From: Sphingomonas koreensis
GTDB lineage: Bacteria > Pseudomonadota > Alphaproteobacteria > Sphingomonadales > Sphingomonadaceae
DNA length: 64,000 nucleotides
Assembly: GCF_002797435.1 (NCBI RefSeq)
Contig: NZ_PGEN01000001.1
Coordinates: forward strand, 1,492,501-1,556,500
Direction of reading: 5' to 3'
The notes beneath the pieces are model-generated. The model saw only the letters and a program-made list of their open reading frames with translations. It did no database searches and was not told the DNA's origin. Below are positions 46,107 to 46,425 of this stretch, piece after piece; the first letter of the stretch is position 1; each line of letters starts with the position of its first letter. The position numbers and the translations under genes were made by a program.

Positions 46107-46206
46107 TCCCCCCTTCAAATGTTGGATTTCATCTGATCTATCCTGATCGATGGAAGCGAGCGCCAACCTCACCTGCCGAACCAGATACACTGCGCCGCGG
46201 ATTGCA

Positions 46207-46326
46207 GTCGCTAACCTGTCGCGCATCTGTCGCCCACCCGTCGCGCCCGTGTCGCGTTGGTGTCGCGTCGATGTCGATCAGGTGTCGCGTCCGCGTACAA
46301 AGCCGTCGCGTCGCGGTCGCGTCCGC
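46207..46326. repeat. Array of 11-bp direct repeats with GTCGC core, upstream of hppA
   Basis: GTCGC starts at 46207, 46218, 46229, 46240, 46251, 46262 and 46284, always 11 bases apart; 46273 has GTCGA and 46295 a degraded GTACA. The phase slips by one base, then GTCGCG recurs at 46305 and 46316. The cores are fixed while the six-base spacers vary freely. Nine of eleven units keep the exact core. The array ends 72 bp before the -35 box of the hppA promoter. Confidence 0.85.
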
Positions 46327-46397
46327 CGGAAATCCCCGCTTTCGCATGAACTTCGCGAACCGCCCCGCCGGTCCCCGCCGCCCCGAATCAGCGCGGC

Positions 46398-46425
46398 TTG
46401 ACAGCCCCCTGCCCCGCTCTACGCT
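46398..46425 (+). promoter_or_regulatory. Sigma-70-type promoter of hppA
   Basis: TTGACA at 46398-46403, a 16-base spacer and TACGCT at 46420-46425. Transcription would start near 46432, about 67 bases before the hppA ATG. Upstream of it, 46107-46206 shows only a weak CTGATC repeat and nothing else I can name. Confidence 0.65.

What the first reader, a model, noticed from the sequence alone, without database searches (positions are those of the whole stretch)
46207..46326. Helically phased array of eleven 11-bp repeats with a fixed GTCGC core upstream of hppA
Seen directly: GTCGC begins every 11 bases from 46207 to 46262 and again at 46284, with decayed units at 46273 (GTCGA) and 46295 (GTACA), a one-base slip, then GTCGCG at 46305 and 46316. 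Core conservation with variable six-base spacers argues for selection on binding rather than simple repeat slippage. One repeat per helical turn puts all cores on one DNA face, as expected for cooperative binding by many regulator copies, for example an OmpR/PhoB-type response regulator. The array ends 72 bp before a TTGACA/TACGCT promoter for the proton-pumping pyrophosphatase, so it may tune energy conservation. I do not know a named element of this form.
Basis: partly seen in the sequence, partly recalled or inferred. Interest (0 to 1): 0.78.

Follow-up and report, generated by a model that had tools for sequence, protein, structure and literature searches.

The report
Dispersed 11-bp repeat arrays with partner gene
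The repeats in front of a proton-pump gene are one of about eleven scattered copies, in this bacterium, of an unnamed intergenic unit (promoter-like head, array of 11-base repeats, conserved tail); one copy also carries a gene for a small DNA-binding protein, which makes the unit's likely partner and its purpose testable.

Summary
The array is real: 11 slots at 11-bp steps (one 10-bp step), 9 with perfect GTCGC cores, spacers variable. It is not an hppA control element. It is one of 11 arrays in this genome, inside a ~250-bp unit: promoter-like head, phased array, tail. Upstream of hppA, 7 of 47 genomes read carry it. Many genomes also have a full unit in which a ~100-aa helix-turn-helix (HTH) gene lies between head and array, its start codon ending the same head. 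The gene co-occurs with arrays (22 of 28 array genomes, 8 of 267 others), with at least 11 gains or losses forced on an hppA tree. Cores are conserved regardless of codon phase, so selection acts on nucleic acid, not peptide. Yet transcription through arrays looks protected: of 31 units of one head type, 22 have a start codon at fixed spacing (its frame nearly always open through the array), 6 instead an rRNA-type boxA, none both, 3 neither. Best reading: a small HTH regulator plus dispersed promoter-array stations. Whether arrays act as DNA or RNA is unresolved; six array genomes lack a close HTH homologue. Nothing was tested at the bench and no structure was obtained. My paper searches found no named element.

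The parts
46113..46152 (+). Head: promoter-like conserved segment ending in a start codon (ATG 46150-46152); contains TGTTGGA and the -10-like TATCCT.
   Evidence: Coordinates. Nearly invariant in 7 genomes at this locus. The same kind of segment ends in the start codon of the HTH gene in other units. Promoter activity not tested.
46150..46401 (+). Leaderless open frame of 83 codons from the head's ATG through the array and tail; probably not a functional peptide.
   Evidence: Start frame open through the array in 28 of 30 units, other two frames in 30 of 60; core conservation does not depend on codon phase.
46206..46326 (+). Phased array: 11 slots, 9 perfect GTCGC cores at 11-bp steps with one 10-bp step.
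46324..46361 (+). Tail: conserved segment CGCCGGAAATCCCCGCTTTCGCATGAACTTCGCGAACC.
   Evidence: the tail pattern matches 3 places in the genome with up to 3 mismatches, each behind an array, 0 control matches. More diverged tails behind other arrays were read by eye.
46398..46425 (+). hppA promoter-like TTGACA/TACGCT, downstream of and separate from the unit.
   Evidence: Genomes without the unit have hppA promoter-like sequence soon after the upstream gene (by eye).

Best explanation
The array belongs to a dispersed unit whose full form is: head, start codon, small HTH gene (81-114 aa), array, tail. The window holds a gene-less copy (head, array, tail). Shown: the anatomy, the many copies, the co-occurrence of HTH gene and arrays, and conservation of cores as nucleic acid. 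Inferred: the HTH protein is the trans-acting partner; it regulates the shared head promoter (its own gene and the gene-less copies) and/or lines up along the array, one copy per turn, as BldC and RdfS do on DNA. Also inferred: transcription through the array matters, because gene-less units tend to carry either a start codon with an open frame or a boxA. I put the array's level of action at RNA about 0.45, DNA about 0.40, undecided 0.15.
For: 11 arrays in the own genome. HTH gene with the same head in front and an array behind: 25 of 30 loci read in full, motif scan of all 30. Co-occurrence in 295 genus genomes: HTH in 22 of 28 genomes with two or more array matches, 8 of 267 others, Fisher p 2e-21 without correction for descent; at least 11 of 15 label changes are forced on an hppA tree of 53 genomes. 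Six Sphingobium genomes picked up by the array scan carry the gene. Core 0.82 against spacer 0.55 identity between seven copies at hppA. Codon-phase test 519 of 559 against 1038 of 1126. Start codon in 22, boxA in 6, both in 0 of 31 type B units.
Against: G104, G163, G079 and G264 have array matches without a close HTH homologue, as do G009 and G115, whose matches look like coding sequence. G116, G265, G290, G099, G300 and G005 have the gene but no strict array match. Each HTH gene carries its own array, so part of the co-occurrence is built in. Of 11 parsed HTH-like loci in the set, a head was recognised in 4 and two (L507, L501) have no phased pairs behind the gene. Arrays in Rhodospirillales, and in five other scanned genomes, have no HTH homologue. 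Head type B was recognised in 31 of 59 units; 12 have no recognised head. No binding, expression or structure data.
Confidence: 0.6

Rival explanations
1. Noncoding RNA battery: the head is a promoter, and the array a multivalent RNA (UGUCGC every 11 nt) that engages a conserved RNA-binding factor; the HTH protein only controls the promoter, and its own mRNA carries the array as a 3' end.
For: boxA, an antitermination signal of untranslated RNAs, in 8 of 59 units against 34 of 10113 control windows, never together with the start codon in 31 type B units, in none of the HTH units. Eight Rhodospirillales arrays stand behind a 16S-type boxA leader and their genomes lack the HTH gene.
Against: No conserved RNA structure: mean z -0.7 and -0.5 for the two strands. 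No Rfam match over the arrays read. boxA in 0 of 11 units of our own genome. Where the frame is translated, ribosomes would cover the array RNA. The rigid 11-base step is unusual for RNA sponges (recalled).
Confidence: 0.35
2. DNA station: the array is a platform on which a small HTH protein (or another regulator) multimerises on one DNA face; transcription is incidental.
For: GTCGC pairs 11 apart 257 times, 10 apart 5 times, 12 apart never. Small winged-HTH proteins BldC and RdfS do this on direct repeats (passages). Neighbouring genes have mixed orientations.
Against: Does not explain why gene-less units carry a start codon with an open frame or a boxA. An inherited 11-bp duplication unit would also give the rigid step.
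Confidence: 0.35
3. Non-autonomous mobile element: gene-less units are deletion derivatives of the HTH unit that spread by an unknown activity, and the cores are its recognition sites.
For: Copies at different places in different lineages and absent upstream of hppA in 40 of 47 genomes read. Tails look alike within a genome and differ between genomes (by eye).
Against: Several sites are shared between species (by eye), so many copies are old; no transposase is part of the unit; no target duplication was established; heads and cores stay conserved in old copies.
Confidence: 0.25
4. Plain minisatellite or chance periodicity.
For: G101 has five identical TGTCGCGTCGG units in a row, so arrays do grow by tandem duplication (L269). 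Many unrelated genomes hold near-identical 11-bp repeats with this core.
Against: In the family the spacers drift while the cores stay; control patterns are rare (in one search the reversed control matched in 7 genomes, the array pattern in 46).
Confidence: 0.04

Closest known systems
BldC and RdfS, small winged-HTH proteins on DNA (PMC5859096, PMC11963761; passages read)
   Same: Small HTH proteins without an effector domain; cooperative head-to-tail assembly, in BldC on direct repeats of varying number; one DNA turn between BldC subunits on the long site.
   Different: BldC sites are AT-rich with 9-bp repeats (passages); here 7-16 GC-rich slots, placed behind the protein's own gene and in dispersed gene-less copies. 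No sequence relation was found.
OmpR/PhoB response-regulator sites (recalled; CenR passages PMC9275681)
   Same: Direct half-sites about one helical turn apart.
   Different: Usually a few half-sites at the regulated promoter (recalled); here long arrays at many loci with no consistent relation to the neighbouring gene.
boxA antitermination leaders of rRNA operons and CRISPR arrays (PMC7862264 passages; the cited Stringer 2020 paper was not held)
   Same: boxA in front of a long untranslated repeat array in some units.
   Different: Units are 6-nt cores with 5-nt spacers, not CRISPR repeats; boxA in 8 of 59 units.
REPIN-RAYT and MITE-type dispersed repeats (recalled)
   Same: Dispersed intergenic copies and a single-copy cognate gene.
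   Different: The gene is a small HTH protein without a recognised catalytic domain; each unit has a promoter-like head and a phased array.
TAACTGA direct repeats of Beggiatoaceae (PMC4679880; abstract and outline)
   Same: Intergenic direct repeats of one short core in many places, with no shared function of neighbours.
   Different: Different core; copies of two to six per set in the species studied; no head, tail or cognate gene described in the abstract.

Membership tests
OmpR/PhoB regulator site controlling hppA | Site tied to the regulated promoter in related genomes | tested here: not met
   Unit at 11 places; present in 7 of 47 hppA upstream regions read.
OmpR/PhoB regulator site controlling hppA | Binding by an OmpR/PhoB-type protein | not testable with these tools
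   Needs purified protein.
Minisatellite | Whole unit, spacer included, repeated | tested here: not met
   Core 0.82 against spacer 0.55 identity at hppA; bits per position. Some arrays elsewhere do have identical units (L269).
CRISPR array | Long near-identical repeats with spacers of tens of bases | tested here: not met
   6-base cores and 5-base spacers.
Structured RNA family in Rfam | Covariance-model match | tested here: not met
   No match over the unit in the window; in 16 further loci no match lies on an array as far as the listed coordinates show.
Protein-coding repeat | Third codon positions freer than the others | tested here: not met
   519 of 559 against 1038 of 1126 conserved.
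Protein-coding repeat | Reading frame kept open | tested here: met
   28 of 30 against 30 of 60; read here as translation through the array, not peptide function.
BldC-like direct-repeat binder | Small HTH protein encoded with the repeats | tested here: met
   25 of 30 loci read in full, motif scan of 30.
BldC-like direct-repeat binder | Cooperative binding to the repeats | not testable with these tools
   Structure prediction did not run.
boxA-led transcription unit | boxA as in the rRNA leader of related bacteria | tested here: inconclusive
   8 of 59 units, 0 of 11 in our genome; same core GCTCTTTGA as in Sphingomonas and Sphingobium 16S leaders; the six bases after it vary.
IS21-type transposon end | Transposase genes flanked by the arrays | tested here: inconclusive
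   No transposase pattern among frames listed near 13 arrays of other taxa (by eye, no family search).

The most novel reading that the evidence does not exclude
A previously undescribed two-part genetic system: a ~100-residue HTH protein and a set of dispersed promoter-array-tail stations built on its own gene's promoter and 3' array, in which passage of RNA polymerase through the array is secured either by ribosomes (leaderless frame) or by a boxA antitermination signal, and in which the arrays decay once the protein is lost.
Probability: 0.4. Interest if true: 0.88.

Novelty: new variant of a known kind. Interest (0 to 1): 0.74.

Why it matters
It would be a compact gene-plus-stations system that comes and goes repeatedly in Sphingomonas and occurs in Sphingobium, with a named candidate protein and natural presence/absence pairs of species. 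The pattern of start codon or boxA, not both, suggests a way to recognise from sequence alone that RNA polymerase has to finish an array. A similar array behind rRNA-type boxA leaders in Rhodospirillales, without the HTH gene, hints that the 11-base GTCGC array has a partner of its own.

Tried and rejected
Arrays in viral contigs: 51 matches, but three control patterns gave 1, 35 and 57, and many of the 51 are near-identical tandem repeats or the same array in similar contigs; dropped. IS21 transposon ends: no transposase pattern seen among frames near 13 arrays of other taxa (no family search; IS21 passages). Pairing of adjacent spacers: mean 2.226 against 2.228 for random pairs. RNA folding: no clear signal. 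Peptide function: negative; tail frames vary among units (by eye). Rfam: nothing over the arrays. A plasmid search with the window unit found one Sphingobium plasmid matching the head only. Paper searches; only listings were seen except for the papers cited with passages or abstract. None of the listed titles names such an element; (TGTCGC, repeats, intergenic) held 148 papers of which 15 were listed. Of 20 further regions fetched, one (L281) gave no array above my threshold and is not among the 59 units.

Full report
Names. The genus is inferred: genome G030 shares contig lengths with Sphingomonas tagetis records.

Observation. The window holds eleven slots at 11-bp steps with GTCGC cores, nine of them perfect, one 10-bp step, and an extra half-offset copy at 46310. 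This exceeds chance in the window and in the genome.

The unit. The genome (4.40 Mb, one contig) has eleven such arrays of 7-16 slots by my chain scoring. Around most lies a common unit: head, array, tail; L017 has no recognised head and L009 no clear tail. The window copy runs from 46113 to 46361. In my reading of what follows the eleven arrays, five have a start codon and six the stop codon of a convergent gene. For 40 arrays from six genomes, heuristic gene calls gave 19, 9, 7 and 5 for the four orientation pairs, so the unit is not tied to one kind of neighbour.

Relatives. Of 295 genus genomes, 46 have at least one match to three TGTCGC at 11-bp steps with up to one mismatch, some of them chance; the reversed control matched in 7. 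None of 24 genomes of other families or genera in the order had a match. I read the region upstream of hppA in 47 genomes by eye: 28 (two of its 30 loci were not readable) and 19 more (seven of its loci were not printed by the script). Seven have the unit (G000, G030, G310, G274, G281, G243, G026); 40 do not, including G079 with a longer gap that I could not recognise. Between the seven copies, core identity is 0.82 and spacer identity 0.55, and the first 40 or so bases of the head are nearly invariant (cores were defined on one sequence of each pair and help the alignment). Several other sites are shared between species, for example upstream of thiD and ispDF (by eye). Tails look alike within a genome and differ between genomes (by eye).

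The partner gene. A search for the head in eight genomes gave 15 places. In 13 an array follows by my count; L449 was misoriented by the script but is the locus of array L072; and in L437 (G101) the head's ATG starts a small HTH gene, itself followed by an array. In our genome this gene lies at C1:2521237-2521557, outside the window, again followed by array and tail. Close homologues occur in 30 of 295 genus genomes. A script found a head motif within 75 nt upstream of a start codon (28 ATG, 2 GTG) and at least one GNCGC pair 11 apart downstream for all 30, plus one spurious frame; since the motif helped to choose the start, this is partly circular, but 25 were also read in full (five were not parsed). 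The 30 proteins (81-114 aa) share 21 invariant columns. Pfam and NCBIfam give only weak HTH matches below their cut-offs, and the PDB nothing significant.

Co-occurrence. Of genomes with two or more array matches 22 of 28 have the gene, of the others 8 of 267; Fisher p 2e-21, not corrected for descent. On an hppA tree of 53 genomes the HTH label needs 15 changes, at least 11 forced by well-supported branches, so the pairing has changed many times; the close pair G237 (gene, 39 matches) and G080 (neither) is an example. This is a gene tree, not a species tree. Exceptions: G009 and G115 (matches that look like coding sequence), G104, G163, G079 and G264 have array matches without a close homologue; G116, G265, G290, G099, G300 and G005 have the gene without a strict match. 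G079 lacks the gene and its hppA gap no longer shows the unit while relatives with the gene keep it, which is what decay after loss would look like, in one case. Six Sphingobium genomes reached through the array scan, one of them (L144) with an atypical array, all carry the gene. Of the HTH-like loci from that call, 11 of 17 were parsed; a head was recognised in 4, and 9 have phased pairs behind the gene. Each gene carries an array, so part of the association is built in.

What is selected. Over 468 units, core positions carry 1.1-1.9 bits and the others 0.2-0.5. The commonest bases of the spacer themselves spell GTCGC, so units look like decayed tandem GTCGC with every second copy kept. Core conservation does not depend on codon phase: third positions 519 of 559, others 1038 of 1126, in 28 units with a start codon (sites were picked by at least 4 of 5 matches), so the peptide is not the target. 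Steps of 11 bp outnumber 10 bp by 257 to 5, with none of 12, as expected for sites on one DNA face, though an inherited 11-bp duplication unit would also give this.

Transcription. Of 59 units from eleven genomes (40, 19), 31 have head type B, 16 type A and 12 no recognised head, four of the last being HTH units. In type B, 22 have ATG or GTG 28-30 nt after the G of GTWGGA, 6 have a boxA, none both, 3 neither; two of the 3 (L067, L272) have 8 of 9 boxA letters. In 30 units with a start codon (these 22 and eight from other loci) its frame is open through the array in 28, the other two frames in 30 of 60, p 4e-5; the frames have no conserved end. boxA-like letters occur in 8 of 59 units against 34 of 10113 control windows, in none of 31 HTH-unit entries, one of them spurious, and in none of the 11 arrays of our own genome. 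The motif is that of Sphingomonas and Sphingobium 16S leaders. I infer that finishing transcription through the array matters; in our own genome this rests on the start codon and open frame alone.

Beyond the family. Eight arrays (three in Asaia, one in a Rhodospirillaceae genome, four in G426) stand behind a leader with GCTGTTTGA, the boxA of G426's own 16S leader, and these three genomes have no HTH homologue at E 1e-6. Of 241 genomes of the class, 3 have the four-unit pattern: our own, G426, and one near-identical tandem repeat.

Reading. The most economical account is a small HTH regulator with dispersed stations derived from its own promoter and array. Whether the array works as DNA (BldC and RdfS are precedents, passages) or as RNA (boxA or start codon, not both) is open, and a mobile origin remains possible. 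The rival readings overlap, so their odds are not exclusive. Novelty is rated as a variant because dispersed repeats with a cognate gene and small HTH proteins on direct repeats are each known; the combination did not appear in the paper searches listed in Tried and rejected.

Noticed in passing
L169, L195, L212 (Asaia); L174; L253, L256, L259, L263 (G426): Phased TGTCGC arrays of 4-7 units behind leaders with the boxA of 16S operons (GCTGTTTGA), in genomes without the HTH gene.
   Followed up: partly
L138, L142, L143, L155, L156, L158, L165, L173, L192, L193, L202 (Dehalococcoidia OY282365): One genome with eleven loci of GTCGCATAAGT-like 11-bp arrays; where read, with promoter-like sequence in front and an inverted GCGACA behind.
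   Followed up: no
L117 (G086), upstream of hppA: A few hundred bases with inverted ends (TTCAAACTTGATCAGGACGGGG and its complement) lie just upstream of hppA, like a small inserted element.
   Followed up: no
L171: A run of 16 GTCGC units at 11-bp steps in an unclassified metagenome contig, spacers G-rich.
   Followed up: no
G163, G264 and other genus genomes: Longer proteins (about 140-660 codon frames) share the same HTH core with the small protein; their role is unknown to me.
   Followed up: no
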